A DNA stretch of 64,000 nt from Pythium myriotylum (taxonomy: Eukaryota > Oomycota > Peronosporomycetes > Pythiales > Pythiaceae), in contig JALJCQ010000013.1 of the NCBI GenBank assembly GCA_023091665.1, positions 1,736,001 to 1,800,000 on the forward strand, given 5' to 3'. Of the stretch, positions 1,748-19,025 are shown piece after piece; within the stretch, counting starts at the first letter, position 1; each line of letters begins with the position of its first letter. The notes under the pieces are model-generated. The model was not told where the DNA came from and made no database searches. It saw only the letters and a program-made list of their open reading frames with translations. Both the position numbers and the translations under genes were made by a program.

Positions 1748-3937
1748 ATGCTGCGTCGAACGCTCGCTCTCGCGGCGGCGACGCTCTCGCTCGTGGACGC
1801 GGCCGCCACCTCCAGCTCCATCTGTCAGAGCGCTGCCTTCCAGGCGCTCACGCCCACGCAGCTCGGCTCGAGCCCGCTGCTTGTGCGCTCGCTCGTCAAC
1901 GGCACCGAGGTCTGCTTCGAGTTCCAGATCTCCGAGTCCACATCGGCGACATGGTTCGCCGTCGGCCTCGCCGCCAGCTCGTCCATGGTCAACTCCCCCA
2001 CGAGCAACGTCATGCTCTACCAGGCGTCGGTCGGCACGCCCGAGTCGTACGTGCTCAGCGCCTACTCGAGCAGTGGCGTCAAGAAGGAGAGCGACCAGTC
2101 ATTCTTTGTGGTCCACGAGACCTCCACGTCCCCGCTCAAGTTCAGCTACCAGCGTACGCTCGCGGCCTCGTCGTCGAACGACGTCGTCGCCAACCCCTCG
2201 GGTGAGAATGAGTTCATCTGGGCCTACGGCACCTCGTGGCCAATCTCGAGCCACCGCAGTGGCACCAAGGGTTCGGCCAAGTACACGCTCACGACCTCCA
2301 CGGCAAGCGGTGGCACGACGGGTACGACCGGCGGCTCCACGACGGTGACTATCTCGACCCCTTCGACGCCGTTCTGCGACGGCAAGAACTGCACTGCTAT
2401 CGTCGGCGGCATCGCATTCGCGATCATGCTGGTCTGCGGCTTCGTCCTCACGGCTGTGATCCCGCACACGCCGCTCGGCCGTGCGCTCCTCCAGCGCACG
2501 CTCACGAGCCCGCCGGTGAAGCTCACCACGAACGCTCCTGTTTCATCGCCGCACGTGATGTTCCTGCAGTGTCTCGCTGATCTTCGTCTCGGTGAAGTGC
2601 TCATCGTGCTCATCTTCGCTGGAGCCCTCGCTGCACTCGTGATCCTCAACAACAAGTCGAACGAGCAGAAGACTTCGGGCCAGGCCGCGCTGCTGATCAT
2701 GATGTTCCTGATCCTCCCCGTCACGCGTATCCCGCTCTGGAAGATCTCGTTCGGCAGCTCGTTCGAACGCATCGTTAAGTTCCACCGCTGGCTCGGCATG
2801 GCGCTCTCGATCACGACCTTCATTCACTTGCTCGAGGCCACCAAGGTCGTCGACCTCTTCAGCTCGGATAAGTACTCGGAGGTGTACCCGATCTGGGGTA
2901 TGTTCGGCTTCATCGCGTTCATCCTCATCGCCTTGACCGCGAACGAGTACATGCGCCGCCGATTCTTCGACGCCTTCTACATCTCACACCGTGTCCTCTC
3001 GATCGTCGGCTTCGTGTTCACGATCTTGCACAGCGCCAAGACTATCGGCCTTGCTCTTCTCGTCCCGCTCGTCTTCTACGCCCTCGGTGTCGTAAGCTCG
3101 TGGGCTACCCAGTACTCGAGCTCGTACCAGGCGACTGTCTCGGTCCACGAAGGCACAAGCGTTGTTACGTTGCTTCTGAACTCGACTGAAAAGACCAAGA
3201 AGATCGCTCAGACCATGGACCTGTGCTCGTACTTCTATGTCCGCATCCCAACCGTTTCGGGCTTCCAGTGGCACCCATTCTCGGCCATCGTCACCCCGAA
3301 CGGCGACTCGATCGGTTTCTGTATCCGCGCCATGGGTCCTCCGGACACAAAGACGTTCACGCGCGCCCTCGTCGACCAGGCCCTTCAGAGCCACTCGCTT
3401 GCGGTCAACCTCTCAGGTCCTTTTGGGAAGCTCTCGGTTGACATCGAGAAGTACGACGTCATTGTGCTCATCGGCGGTGGCATTGGTGTGACCCCGCTCC
3501 TCAGCGCACTCAACCAGCACCGCCTCTTCGCGAAGAAGTCCGCCAAGGCCGCCGACTGGAACATCTTGTGGTCGGTGCGCTACCCGCAGGATCTGCTCAT
3601 GATTGACCAGCTCATGCCGAGCCAGGGCCAGCTCCAGTACTCCGCTTCGAACCTCCAGGAGCCGTACCAGATCGGATCGGCGGCCCCGCCTCTCAACGCG
3701 ACCTGGAACACGCACTGCTCAGAAGTGAAGGAGGACGGTGTCATGACGCGTGCGAACGGTGAGCAGATCGCCTACCGTGCGGGCATCCCGGTGCTTGATG
3801 AGTACATCAACACTGGTCGTTACATGGGCCGCAAGGTCGCAGTGCTTGCCTGTGGGCCGCCGACGATGGTGGTTGAGGCCCAGTCGCTTGCGCGCAGCTG
3901 TGGTTTCGACTTCCACAAGGAGGTGTTCCACTGGTAA
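1748..3937 (+). CDS. DOMON-domain ferric reductase / NADPH-oxidase-like transmembrane flavocytochrome
   Basis: A single-exon gene of 729 aa. The ATG at 1748 is chosen because it begins a clear signal peptide (MLRRTLALAAATLSLVDAAA). Residues about 30-170 look like an extracellular DOMON haem or sugar-binding domain (WFAVGLAAS near 68), followed by a Ser/Thr/Gly linker and a first membrane segment at about 216-238. Further membrane helices follow; histidines in HRWLG (about 345) and HRVLS/LHSAKT (about 414-430) are candidate ligands of the two haems of the ferric-reductase core. The cytosolic part has the FAD motif HPFSAI (about 509), the NADP motif GGGIGVTPL (about 576) and the terminal CGPPTMV (about 701). 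The family moves electrons from NADPH across a membrane to ferric iron or oxygen. The substrate cannot be told from sequence. Confidence 0.85.
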   Translation: MLRRTLALAAATLSLVDAAATSSSICQSAAFQALTPTQLGSSPLLVRSLVNGTEVCFEFQISESTSATWFAVGLAASSSMVNSPTSNVMLYQASVGTPESYVLSAYSSSGVKKESDQSFFVVHETSTSPLKFSYQRTLAASSSNDVVANPSGENEFIWAYGTSWPISSHRSGTKGSAKYTLTTSTASGGTTGTTGGSTTVTISTPSTPFCDGKNCTAIVGGIAFAIMLVCGFVLTAVIPHTPLGRALLQRTLTSPPVKLTTNAPVSSPHVMFLQCLADLRLGEVLIVLIFAGALAALVILNNKSNEQKTSGQAALLIMMFLILPVTRIPLWKISFGSSFERIVKFHRWLGMALSITTFIHLLEATKVVDLFSSDKYSEVYPIWGMFGFIAFILIALTANEYMRRRFFDAFYISHRVLSIVGFVFTILHSAKTIGLALLVPLVFYALGVVSSWATQYSSSYQATVSVHEGTSVVTLLLNSTEKTKKIAQTMDLCSYFYVRIPTVSGFQWHPFSAIVTPNGDSIGFCIRAMGPPDTKTFTRALVDQALQSHSLAVNLSGPFGKLSVDIEKYDVIVLIGGGIGVTPLLSALNQHRLFAKKSAKAADWNILWSVRYPQDLLMIDQLMPSQGQLQYSASNLQEPYQIGSAAPPLNATWNTHCSEVKEDGVMTRANGEQIAYRAGIPVLDEYINTGRYMGRKVAVLACGPPTMVVEAQSLARSCGFDFHKEVFHW

Positions 3938-15270: not shown

Positions 15271-16485
15271 TTAGTTGCTGTCGTGGGGACCGAAAAACTC
15301 ATAATGCACCTGCTCAGCTGGCACACCAAGCTCACCGAGGATCTTACGTACGTTGAGCATGAACGCAGGCGGGCCGCAGAAGTAGTAGTGGGCGTCAATC
15401 GAATCGCCAATGTACGCCTTCAGGATTTCCTTGGTCAGCAGACCCTTGGCATCCCCAAGAGCACTCGAGTCAAAGACCGTCTTGACCTTGAAGCTATCGC
15501 GCTCGCCGGCTAGCTGGTGGAAGCGTGCGCCAAGTGCCGCCGTCTGCGGGCAGCGGTTGCAGTTGACCATAAGCACCTTATTGGGCAGATTCTTGGTTGC
15601 CAGGAACTCTGCCATTGAAGCCATTGGCGTGATGCCAACTCCGCCACTGAGAAGCACAATCGGTTTGTCATGATCTACCTCCAAGAAGAAGTCACCGCTT
15701 GGCACCGTGAGCTTGAGCACATCTCCTTCCTGAATTTGCTCGTGGAGGTAGCTTGAGACCTTGCCCATGGGGCAGCCTGTCATGGACGGACCTTCCTTCT
15801 TGACGGTGATGCGGTATTCACCCGTGCCCGGCGCGTTCGATAGCGAATAGTTGCGCTGTGTCGTCATCATAGGCAACTCCACGCGGATGCCGATGTACTG
15901 GCCGGGAAGAAAGCCGAGAATGGGCTTGCCATCCTTCGGCTTCAAGTGGAATGACATCGTGTCAGCTGACTCGGCAACTTTCTTGGAGACCACAAAGTCG
16001 CGCCAGCCCTCCCAACCACCAGGGAGCTTACCCTTCCCTTCACGAAGCTCGCGCTCGCGATCAATGAAAATATCCGCGAGCACCTGGTACCCCTCAGCCC
16101 ACGCAGACATGATCTCCGGAGTCGCCGCGTCACCCAAGACCTCCTTGATGGCCCAGAGCAGGTTCTCCCCCACGACCGGATAGTGCTCGGGCAAGATGTG
16201 GAGCGCGACGTGCTTGTGGGCGATGCGCTCGACGGCGGGTCCGAGTGCGCCGAGGTTGTCGATGTTTTGCGCGTACGCGAGCACGGACTGCGCGAGCGCG
16301 AGTGGCTGGCGCGCGACGCTGTCGCCCGGGAGCTTGACCTGGTGGGTGGGGTTGAAGAGCTCGCTGACCTTGGGGTTGTTGGGGAGCATGCGTCCGTACA
16401 TGGTGGTGGTGATGGCGTAGCCGTGCTTTTCGAGCACGGGGGCCGTGGCCTTGATGATCTTGACGGTGGCGGGCTTGAGCGACAT
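15271..16485 (-). CDS. Flavohaemoglobin (nitric oxide dioxygenase), copy A
   Basis: One exon of 404 aa. The start at 16485 matches copy B exactly in length and sequence; an upstream ATG at 16617 in the same frame would add 44 residues without family similarity. The globin domain covers residues 1-140, with the proximal-histidine region around RIAHKHVALHILPEHYPVVGENL. Next come the ferredoxin-reductase FAD motif RNYSLSN and the NAD motif GGVGITPMASMAE. The end is CGPPAFML with HYEFFGPHD. The enzyme turns nitric oxide and oxygen into nitrate using NAD(P)H. Copy B lies 1.3 kb upstream in the same orientation. The globin half is nearly identical between copies at the DNA level, while the reductase half is not. 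Confidence 0.93.
   Translation of the reverse strand: MSLKPATVKIIKATAPVLEKHGYAITTTMYGRMLPNNPKVSELFNPTHQVKLPGDSVARQPLALAQSVLAYAQNIDNLGALGPAVERIAHKHVALHILPEHYPVVGENLLWAIKEVLGDAATPEIMSAWAEGYQVLADIFIDRERELREGKGKLPGGWEGWRDFVVSKKVAESADTMSFHLKPKDGKPILGFLPGQYIGIRVELPMMTTQRNYSLSNAPGTGEYRITVKKEGPSMTGCPMGKVSSYLHEQIQEGDVLKLTVPSGDFFLEVDHDKPIVLLSGGVGITPMASMAEFLATKNLPNKVLMVNCNRCPQTAALGARFHQLAGERDSFKVKTVFDSSALGDAKGLLTKEILKAYIGDSIDAHYYFCGPPAFMLNVRKILGELGVPAEQVHYEFFGPHDSN
15989..16458. repeat. Near-identical 470-bp block shared with the second flavohaemoglobin (pair at 18529-18998)
   Basis: By direct reading, 15989-16458 matches 18529-18998 (constant offset 2540) with only two differences, at 16330 and 16339. 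On both sides of the block the copies diverge at once, in the reductase domain on one side and in the first codons on the other. The block covers most of the globin domain. Confidence 0.9.
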
Positions 16486-16821
16486 CGTGGAGGACTTGGT
16501 GGTCGCTAGAAGGCGAATTGCGTTGTGAGTCCCGGTGGGGAACTGCTGCGCTTCGGCGAATTGCGGATCACTCATTCTCGAGCCGTGTTGCTTCCGCCTT
16601 GGCTGCAGGAAAGACATGCAACCGCCTGAGAGATCCTGTCGTTCCAGTTCGGTTTCAAAGGGACGCAGCAGCTCAGCTGTCCTTCTGAGATGAGTGATCA
16701 GTTTTGTTCATTGGTTGAAAAGCTCAGTCAGTACTATTTGATTGGTAGAAACGGCGTTGTCACGTGAGTCATCCAAAAAAACACCCTACTGGGTGCGTGT
16801 CTCTTCGTCTCAGCGGGTGGT

Positions 16822-16835
16822 CCAGATTGGAGCGG
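16822..16835. repeat. Left copy of a 14-bp direct repeat flanking the TIR element
   Basis: CCAGATTGGAGCGG occurs here and again at 17516-17529, immediately outside the two ends of the inverted-repeat element. This is what a target-site duplication looks like. The exact length can shift by one base because the element ends share letters with the repeat. Confidence 0.7.
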
Positions 16836-17515
16836 ACTTTTGACAAAAGTGGGGGCTTTCCAGAACTGCCTGCCAGAAGTGGGCAAAAACTGACAAAAGT
16901 GGGGGCGGGTCAGGGTAGCTAAATCAGTGAGCGTAAACTGACAGAAGTGGGTGAATGCAATACCAGAAGTATGGATCGTGGTACAAATTACACCGTACAT
17001 TTTCACCCATTTCACCCTCGTTCCACCCGTAGTCAATCTCGGGCGGGGGGTTGAGCCAAGAATCCCAGTGCTTGTAGAAGCACGGTGTGTGCATCGTGTG
17101 CGCGCAATTTGCGGACGCGATCGTCTTGCGCTCAGGCTCCGTGCATATGTCGCACGGAGGATACACAGACATATTTCTTACGCTTGCGCGCAGCGTCAAG
17201 ATCACGCGCCCTGGCTTTGGCGAGCTTCAGGCGGACTTCGCGGAGACGGGGGTTCCGCGTCTCTCGACAGACACGGCGGCCTTCGTGCTGCTGAAGGTTC
17301 CGCTTGCTGTGCAACACTTTCTTGCACTTCTTGCAAGCGAACTCTTTCATGGTTGTCCGGAGTGTTGGTTACTTGGGGTTACTGGGACTTGACGAAACTG
17401 ACAGTTGTGGGGGCTTTTCTGCCTTTTCATCTGCCAGTGAAACCGCCCCCACTTTTGTCAGTTTTTGCCCACTTCTGGCAGGCAGTTCTGGAAAGCCCCC
17501 ACTTTTGTCAAAAGT
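16836..17515. mobile_element. 680-bp element with 73-bp perfect terminal inverted repeats
   Basis: The ends 16836-16908 and 17443-17515 are perfect inverted copies of 73 bp, starting ACTTTTGACAAAAGTGGGGG. Each end holds two copies of a TGACAAAAGTGGGGGC-type motif about 50 bp apart, with weaker copies just inside (near 16940 and 17400), as expected for sub-terminal binding sites of a transposase. The element is flanked by a 14-bp direct repeat. Inside are two overlapping minus-strand frames with cysteine/histidine clusters but no transposase, so the copy is probably non-autonomous. It sits in the spacer between the two flavohaemoglobin genes. Family assignment is open: a 14-bp duplication is longer than those usual for hAT, Mutator, PIF or Tc1 elements. 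Confidence 0.75.
16924..17350 (-). pseudogene. Zinc-finger reading frames inside the TIR element
   Basis: Frame one (17350-17132, 72 codons) begins MKEFACKKCKKVLHSKRNL and carries a C-x2-C-x12-H-x5-C finger followed by a long basic helix. Frame two (17205-16924, 93 codons) overlaps it in another frame and carries CDICTEPERKTIASANCAH, an incomplete RING-like cluster (C-x2-C...C-x-H-x2-H-x2-C), with no clear second half. The overlap suggests one former gene broken by a frameshift, or a spliced gene whose junction I cannot find. No transposase catalytic domain is present. The function is unknown; DNA binding by the first finger is inference. Confidence 0.4.
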
Positions 17516-17529
17516 CCAGATTGGAGCGG
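17516..17529. repeat. Right copy of the 14-bp direct repeat flanking the TIR element
   Basis: Identical to 16822-16835 (CCAGATTGGAGCGG), in the same orientation, directly after the right inverted repeat. Confidence 0.7.
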
Positions 17530-17810
17530 TGCCGTGGTAAAGAGAAGCGACAGAGTGACGAGGAGATGGACGATTCCGAATCTTCGCATCCTTCTGACCA
17601 CACGCGAAGTGTCGCGCCTGACTGAAGGTCCGCCATCGACGTGTAGAAAATGGGACCGAACAGGAAGCTCACGACGAGGCGCCGGGTCGCTGTTTGAAGA
17701 GGTGATCTTCGGTTACAAGCAACCAACGCGTACGAAAGGCAGGGAATCTATTTTTTTGTTTCAGTGTGTGCTTATAGCACGTTATAATCGAGGCCGTGTG
17801 ATACCGTTGC

Positions 17811-19025
17811 CTAGTTGCTGTCGTGGGGACCAAAGAACTCGTAATGGATCTGCTCGGCCGGCACACCCAGCTCTTGAAGCGTCTTGCGCACACTGACCAT
17901 GAAGACAGGCGGGCCACAGAAGTAGTAGTGGGCCAGGGTGGTGTTGCCCACGTACGACTCGAGCAGCTCCTTGGTCAGGTAGCCCTCGGCGTCGCCCAGG
18001 CCGCTCGCACTGTAGACCGTCTTTACCGAGAAGTTGTCGTTCTCGGTTGCGAGGTGCTGGAAGCGTGCGCCGAGTGCAGCGACCTCTGGGCAGCGGCTGC
18101 AATTGACCATGACCACTTGGTTCGGCAGCTTCTTGCTGGCCAGGAATTCCGCCATGGACGACATGGGTGTGATGCCCACGCCACCGCTAATGAGAACAAT
18201 CGGTTTCTCGTGGTTCACCTCCAAGAAAAAGTCGCCGCTTGGCACCGTGATCTTGAGCACGTCTCCTTCGTTCACGTGGTCGTGGAGGTAGCTCGACACC
18301 TTGCCCATAGGGCAACCCGATGCTGCCGGTCCTTCCTTCTTGACGGTAATTCGGTACTCACCAGCATCAGGTCCATTCGATAGCGAGTAGTTGCGCTGTG
18401 TCGTCATCATTGGGAGCTCGATGCGGATGCCGATGTACTGACCAGGCAAAAAACTCAGGATCTCTTTGCCGTCCTTTGGCTTGAGATGGAAGGAGGTGAT
18501 CTCCGACGACTCAACGACCTTCTTGGAAACCACAAAGTCGCGCCAGCCCTCCCAACCACCAGGGAGCTTACCCTTCCCTTCACGAAGCTCGCGCTCGCGA
18601 TCAATGAAAATATCCGCGAGCACCTGGTACCCCTCAGCCCACGCAGACATGATCTCCGGAGTCGCCGCGTCACCCAAGACCTCCTTGATGGCCCAGAGCA
18701 GGTTCTCCCCCACGACCGGATAGTGCTCGGGCAAGATGTGGAGCGCGACGTGCTTGTGGGCGATGCGCTCGACGGCGGGTCCGAGTGCGCCGAGGTTGTC
18801 GATGTTTTGCGCGTACGCGAGCACGGACTGCGCGAGCGCGAGTGGCTGGCGCGCGACGCTGTCGCCCGGAAGCTTGACTTGGTGGGTGGGGTTGAAGAGC
18901 TCGCTGACCTTGGGGTTGTTGGGGAGCATGCGTCCGTACATGGTGGTGGTGATGGCGTAGCCGTGCTTTTCGAGCACGGGGGCCGTGGCCTTGATGATTT
19001 CGATCGTCGACTGGGAGAGCGGCAT
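17811..19025 (-). CDS. Flavohaemoglobin (nitric oxide dioxygenase), copy B
   Basis: One exon of 404 aa, the same length as copy A and in tandem with it. Start MPLSQSTIEIIKATAPVLEKHGYAITTT; globin domain about 1-140; FAD motif RNYSLSNGPDAGEY; NAD motif GGVGITPMSSMAE; end CGPPVFMVSVRK with HYEFFGPHDSN. Substitutions relative to copy A are spread over the reductase half (for example VESSEITSFHLKPKDGKEILSF against AESADTMSFHLKPKDGKPILGF), while residues 10-166 are almost unchanged. The likely role is detoxification of nitric oxide made by the organism or its host. Two copies may allow different regulation. The upstream region, 19026-19601, differs from that of copy A. Confidence 0.93.
   Translation of the reverse strand: MPLSQSTIEIIKATAPVLEKHGYAITTTMYGRMLPNNPKVSELFNPTHQVKLPGDSVARQPLALAQSVLAYAQNIDNLGALGPAVERIAHKHVALHILPEHYPVVGENLLWAIKEVLGDAATPEIMSAWAEGYQVLADIFIDRERELREGKGKLPGGWEGWRDFVVSKKVVESSEITSFHLKPKDGKEILSFLPGQYIGIRIELPMMTTQRNYSLSNGPDAGEYRITVKKEGPAASGCPMGKVSSYLHDHVNEGDVLKITVPSGDFFLEVNHEKPIVLISGGVGITPMSSMAEFLASKKLPNQVVMVNCSRCPEVAALGARFQHLATENDNFSVKTVYSASGLGDAEGYLTKELLESYVGNTTLAHYYFCGPPVFMVSVRKTLQELGVPAEQIHYEFFGPHDSN
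18529..18998. repeat. Near-identical block, partner of 15989-16458
   Basis: Second member of the 470-bp pair in the flavohaemoglobin genes, with two mismatches. See the entry at 15989. Confidence 0.9.

What the first reader, a model, noticed from the sequence alone, without database searches (positions are those of the whole stretch)
16822..17529. Small TIR element with 73-bp perfect ends, 14-bp target duplication and a zinc-finger cargo
Read directly: 73-bp perfect inverted repeats (16836-16908, 17443-17515), internal copies of TGACAAAAGTGGGGGC in each end, and CCAGATTGGAGCGG on both sides. A duplication of 13-15 bp is longer than those of the common cut-and-paste families (2-11 bp). The cargo has a C-x2-C-x12-H-x5-C finger and an incomplete RING-like cluster, but no transposase. 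Perfect ends imply recent activity, so a full-length partner encoding the transposase should exist elsewhere. It could be a new transposon family or a satellite element.
Basis: seen in the sequence. Interest (0 to 1): 0.75.

Follow-up and report, generated by a model that had tools for sequence, protein, structure and literature searches.

The report
Non-autonomous Mutator-like (MULE) transposon
This is a small jumping gene that lost the middle part with its transposase and kept a piece of a zinc-finger gene; longer relatives with a Mutator-type transposase gene sit elsewhere in the same genome, so it belongs to a known kind of transposon.

Summary
The element is real, but the reading '14-bp duplication, possibly a new family' does not hold. 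The inverted arms are 75 bp (16834-16908 / 17443-17517, 100%), because terminal GG...CC belongs to the element. The target duplication is then AGATTGGAGC, 10 bp; it looks like 14 bp because the target also had CC before and GG after it. The end motif occurs at 11 loci found in the same genome. Eight have two ends with a flush 9-10 bp duplication (7 of 8 perfect, 1 of 8 with 8/9 bases). Counting GG/CC as target gives a perfect 13-14 bp repeat at only 2 of 8. The predicted long partners exist: C27 (3.2 kb) and C22 (3.4 kb) carry MULE transposase sequence on one strand and a C2H2+RING gene, homologous to the window's 'cargo', on the other. The window copy is an internal-deletion derivative: no transposase, RING truncated, reading frame split. 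A 99%-identical copy with its own duplication lies on C12. No intact transposase gene, and no long copy of the window's own subfamily, was found. Verdict: new member of a known kind (non-autonomous MULE). Least ordinary: the antisense C2H2-RING gene, with a relative in Pythium insidiosum; zinc-finger second ORFs in MULEs have precedents.

The parts
16834..17517 (.). whole element, 684 bp, non-autonomous MULE
   Evidence: inverted arms, second copy on C12, flush 10-bp repeat
16824..16833 (+). left target site duplication AGATTGGAGC
17518..17527 (+). right target site duplication AGATTGGAGC
16834..16908 (+). left terminal inverted repeat, 75 bp, starts GGACTTTTGAC; motif copies at positions 9, 39, 59
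17443..17517 (-). right terminal inverted repeat, 75 bp, ends GTCAAAAGTCC; motif copies at the same three positions
17132..17350 (-). open frame with the C2H2-like finger and basic linker of the second gene; leaves the family sequence at the frame change near 17168
16924..17205 (-). open frame that holds the first part of the RING domain of the second gene; the last C-x2-C pair is missing

Best explanation
The feature is a non-autonomous Mutator-like element (MULE). The parent type has inverted ends that start with GG and carry a motif three times, a MULE transposase gene on one strand and a C2H2-RING gene on the other. An internal deletion removed the transposase gene and the end of the RING domain and left both ends. 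Shown: ends, copies, flush 9-10 bp repeats, long relatives with both genes. Inferred: the transposase of a long relative binds the motifs in the ends, excises the element and inserts it with a staggered cut of 9-10 bp, and acts in trans on short copies such as this one. Not shown: that any copy is active today.
For: Second copy, 684 against 687 bp, 5 substituted positions and 2 length differences, on another contig with a different flush repeat. Flush repeats of 9-10 bp at 8 loci, 7 of 8 perfect. Motif spacing kept at about 30 and 20 bp in 15 of 17 ends. C27: PF10551 MULE transposase 29.2 bits, cut-off 27.6. C22: SWIM 30.6 bits, cut-off 19.6, 9-10 bp repeat and the same end type as C14. The window's cargo is homologous to the second gene of both long copies. 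Best outside relatives of the C22 transposase piece have MULE or SWIM domains (5 of 7 with PF10551 and/or a SWIM domain listed plus P0003 above cut-off).
Against: No long copy with the window's own end type (GGACTTTTGAC) was found; the long copies belong to two sister subfamilies. PF10551 in C22 (16.2 bits) and PF03108 in C27 (16.4) and C22 (19.8) are below their cut-offs. Frames of both long transposase genes are broken or may hold introns. Element ends were set by eye. 3 of 11 loci gave no repeat: C12:1543156-1543356 has two motif-like ends without one, the two C7 loci show one end only.
Confidence: 0.95

Rival explanations
1. A new transposon family with a 13-15 bp staggered cut.
For: The window has 14 of 14 and C29 has 13 of 13 identical bases if GG/CC is counted as target.
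Against: The other 6 of 8 loci match only 12/13, 11/13 (three), 10/13 and 11/14 on that count, while the flush 9-10 bp repeat is perfect in 7 of 8. GG is at the left end of 8 of 8 and CC at the right end of 6 of 8 (CT and CA in the others), so these bases go with the element. Related long copies carry MULE transposase sequence.
Confidence: 0.02
2. A satellite element whose C2H2-RING gene is kept by selection in the short copies, so that they are more than deletion leftovers.
For: The C12 copy keeps an open frame of 130 codons; short copies on C12, C13, C29 and C30 retain the first part of this gene.
Against: Window copy frameshifted; two finger ligands replaced in C29 and C30, and RING truncated in the window and C12 copies; C14 has a stop inside its RING part. 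C29 and C30 also keep a damaged start of the transposase gene, as plain end-retention would give.
Confidence: 0.04
3. A local inverted duplication, not a transposon.
For: The inverted arms alone would allow it.
Against: A whole second copy, 99% identical, at another locus with a different flush repeat, and six further two-ended relatives.
Confidence: 0.005

Closest known systems
Oomycete MULEs, for example MuDRx-Phytophthora (group 17 in PMC6446971; passages only)
   Same: oomycete-type relatives, 9-bp duplications, inverted ends of 40-80 bp, MULE transposase
   Different: listed there with one ORF and a FLYWCH finger; no antisense C2H2-RING ORF is listed for it. Sequences were not compared.
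Spectre and Ghost MULEs of arthropods (PMC6446971; passages only)
   Same: Spectre: two ORFs (C2H2 and transposase), perfect 74-bp inverted ends, 8-bp duplication. Ghost: a 420-bp ORF with a RING domain beside the transposase
   Different: here C2H2 and RING are in one protein; other hosts; no sequence comparison was made. The paper's table lists these clades with one ORF each, unlike its text.
Mutyl of Yarrowia lipolytica (PMC6446971; passages only)
   Same: MULE with a second ORF (MutB), C2H2 finger, 9-10 bp duplication
   Different: 22-bp ends; the paper gives the direction of MutB as same-orientation in the text and antisense in the table
Muta1 of Aedes aegypti (PMC5225508; passages only)
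   Same: about 3.2 kb active MULE, repeated motifs in the ends, 8-9 bp duplications, many shorter derivatives
   Different: nine 12-bp tandem repeats per end, little or no target preference reported; here three spaced motifs per end

Membership tests
Mutator-like elements (MULE) | target site duplication of 8-11 bp flush with the ends | tested here: met
   10, 9, 9, 9, 9, 9, 9 (8/9 bases), 10 at 8 loci; range from PMC6446971 passages
Mutator-like elements (MULE) | terminal inverted repeats shared by autonomous and non-autonomous copies | tested here: inconclusive
   75-bp perfect ends in the window; the same motif plan is in the C27 and C22 long copies, but those have other end sequences (GGACAAATG, GGGCTTTCG), and no long copy with the window's own end was found
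Mutator-like elements (MULE) | MULE-type transposase in the parent or a full-length relative | tested here: met
   C27: PF10551 above cut-off; C22: SWIM above cut-off, PF10551 below it. The window element itself has none (no hit to the three C27 transposase pieces in the window)
Mutator-like elements (MULE) | mobility: excision or reinsertion, empty sites | not testable with these tools
   G000 has no relatives held; only the differing flush repeats of copies speak for transposition
New family with 13-15 bp duplication | 13-15 bp identical repeat at most copies | tested here: not met
   perfect at 2 of 8 loci

The most novel reading that the evidence does not exclude
The antisense C2H2-RING gene is a conserved accessory gene of an oomycete MULE lineage: a protein that binds DNA with its finger and ubiquitinates with its RING, helping integration or countering host silencing, in the way proposed for other second genes of MULEs. 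Its zinc ligands are kept in proteins 48-50% identical (C27, C22, P0008, P0009), which suggests that it was once selected for.
Probability: 0.3. Interest if true: 0.5.

Novelty: new member of a known kind. Interest (0 to 1): 0.27.

Why it matters
It shows that no new transposon superfamily is needed here, and how terminal GG/CC plus matching target bases can make a 10-bp duplication look like 14 bp. It also describes a two-gene MULE lineage (transposase plus antisense C2H2-RING protein) whose transposase relatives are in Aphanomyces euteiches and whose second gene has a relative in Pythium insidiosum; what that second protein does would be testable.

Tried and rejected
Local inverted duplication: rejected by the C12 copy. 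Captured host gene as cargo: rejected, since the same gene sits in the long elements. An 18.6-kb giant element at C12:3141941-3160499: its ends and 9-bp repeat are there, but inside lie retrotransposon ORFs in two opposite copies (gag, RNase H and integrase domains), so I read it as a short element with nested insertions. An IMG/VR contig (L059) matched 33 residues of the second gene; my tblastn of six query pieces against it with default filters gave no hit at E 1, and I dropped it. The single-sequence search with the C27 second gene scored none of 8 candidates; the four-sequence alignment found two proteins among 7994 scored. An empty site in the paralogous gene spacer of the window was sought by self-comparison of 16400-18200 and not found. 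The promoter/terminator scan gave 0 promoter-like sites (0.5 expected) and 2 terminator-like ones (1.5 expected); it is made for bacteria and says little here.

Full report
Observation. The window holds perfect inverted arms at 16834-16908 and 17443-17517 (75 bp), TGACAAAAGTGGGGGC twice in each, and CCAGATTGGAGCGG on both sides.

Copies. The window is C13:1736001-1800000 of an unnamed 58.7-Mb assembly in 55 contigs. DNA and motif searches and a protein search with the second gene led to 11 loci with the end motif: the window; C12:2637619-2638305; C12:3141941-3160499; C14:251082-251802; C29:362244-363074; C30:105376-106178; C27:3092-6266; C22:314735-318102; C12:1543156-1543356; C7:372385-372458; C7:494815 onward. 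The tool says that such counts are lower bounds. Controls with the reversed pattern: 0 against 16 hits, 1 against 27, 0 against 8.

Duplication length. With the ends set at GG...CC, the flush direct repeats are: window 10/10, C12 (2.64 Mb) 9/9, C12 (3.14 Mb) 9/9, C14 9/9, C29 9/9, C30 9/9, C27 8/9, C22 10/10. With GG/CC counted as target, the 13- or 14-bp repeat is perfect only in the window (14/14) and at C29 (13/13); the others match 12/13 (C12 3.14 Mb), 11/13 (C12 2.64 Mb, C14, C30), 10/13 (C27) and 11/14 (C22). I set the ends by eye: the left end is GG in 8 of 8, the right end CC in 6 of 8, CT in C14 and CA in C22. At C29 the right end has one more C, so a 10-bp repeat with symmetric ends is equally possible there. 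Three loci give no repeat: C12:1543156-1543356 has two motif-like ends without one, and the two C7 loci show one end only within what I fetched. In the eight sites the second base before the repeat is C in 7 of 8 and the second base after it is G in 5 of 8 (read). A target preference of this kind would help explain the 14-bp look of the window; eight sites are few, and Muta1 is reported to show little or none (PMC5225508, passages).

Partners. C27:3092-6266 has three ORFs on the minus strand. Pfam gives PF10551 for one at 29.2 bits (cut-off 27.6), PF03108 for another at 16.4 bits (below its cut-off of 25) and nothing for the third. On the plus strand is the C2H2-RING gene, 3160-3570. C22 has the same plan: SWIM at 30.6 bits (cut-off 19.6); PF10551 16.2 and PF03108 19.8 bits, both below cut-off; PF08731 (AFT) 23.2 bits, cut-off 21.6, on the same piece as PF03108. 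A third two-gene copy on C7 has its second gene split by about 9.6 kb, a transposase piece 92% identical to C27, and no right end that I could see. The C27 transposase piece has 17 matches in the genome at E 0.001 or better, 14 of 17 with less than 50% identity. The transposase frames of C27 and C22 are interrupted by stops, or by introns that I did not model; no intact gene was identified, and I did not look at the more distant matches.

Anatomy of the window copy. Its minus strand carries the start of the second gene: finger and basic linker, 62.5% identical to C22 and 52% to C27 over 56 residues. Then comes the first part of the RING; beyond it the sequence leaves the family and the last C-x2-C pair is missing. 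The C12 sister copy (687 against 684 bp) differs at 5 substituted positions and by two length differences of 2 and 1 bp, and there the two parts form one open frame of 130 codons. Loss of the middle of a two-gene parent explains this. C29 and C30 keep a damaged start of the transposase gene at one side and the start of the second gene at the other; C14 keeps RING pieces.

Ends. A motif close to GACAAAAGTGGG occurs three times in 15 of the 17 ends examined (9 loci), with spacings of 29-30 and 20 bp, most often at 9, 39 and 59 from the end; the left ends of C27 and C22 have only the outer one (up to two mismatches allowed, no shuffled control run). In maize, MURA binds a motif of about 32 bp in the inverted repeat (PMC3310237, passages). 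That the motifs here are binding sites is inference.

Second gene. Across C27, C22, the C12 copy, a JGI protein (P0008) and a Pythium insidiosum protein (P0009), finger ligands C8, C11, H24, C30 and RING ligands C69, C72, C85, H87, H90, C93 are invariant (5 of 5); the last C-x2-C pair is present in 3 of 5. P0008 and P0009 lie on contigs of 1201 and 591 bases, so their link to a MULE is not shown. Pfam matches to zinc-finger families are mostly below the curated cut-offs (the window RING frame reaches 21.1 bits for PF00097, cut-off 21). Against selection in short or broken copies: two finger ligands are replaced in C29 and C30, and the C7 copy lacks three residues with one ligand. C27 against the C7 copy gives dN/dS of 0.040/0.069 and 0.048/0.069 for two parts of the second gene, 0.033/0.063 and 0.067/0.078 for two parts of the transposase; C29 against C27, 0.199/0.403 over 53 codons; the C12 copy against C22 is saturated at synonymous sites. 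The numbers of changes are small and no test was made.

Place. The element lies between two tandem flavohaemoglobin-like genes, 15271-16617 and 17811-19025, both on the minus strand, 216 bp upstream of the first ATG of the longer ORF; the true start of that gene was not established.

Host. No call names the host.

Literature. MULEs have 8-11 bp duplications; Phytophthora MuDRx 9 bp with 40-80 bp ends; Spectre has a C2H2 ORF, Ghost a RING ORF, Mutyl a second ORF (PMC6446971, passages). The same table lists a C3HC4 RING finger for one Phytophthora element of another group (37_Pi). No paper was read whole. In six searches I saw no listing that names an oomycete MULE with a combined C2H2-RING gene; they cover open-licence papers only, I opened three papers, and Repbase was not available.

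Verdict. A non-autonomous MULE deletion derivative: new member of a known kind.

Noticed in passing
window 15271-16617 (-) and 17811-19025 (-): Tandem flavohaemoglobin-like genes (globin, FAD and NAD domains); by eye their first halves are almost identical as proteins while the 3' ends are about 74% identical as DNA, which may point to gene conversion.
   Followed up: partly
C12:3141941-3160499 (L009, L046, L010): Two copies of retrotransposon ORFs (gag, RNase H, integrase domains) in opposite orientation inside a member of this MULE family.
   Followed up: partly
C27 near 3110-3135 (L045) and C30 near 106070-106100 (L036): Long runs of G (or C) in or next to the ends of two copies, at the G-rich motif; expansions or assembly artefacts.
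   Followed up: no
sites flanking 8 copies: C two bases before the duplication in 7 of 8 and G two bases after it in 5 of 8: a possible target preference.
   Followed up: partly
C12:1543156-1543356 (L033): Two motif-like ends of this family only about 200 bp apart, without a flush repeat; origin unexplained.
   Followed up: no
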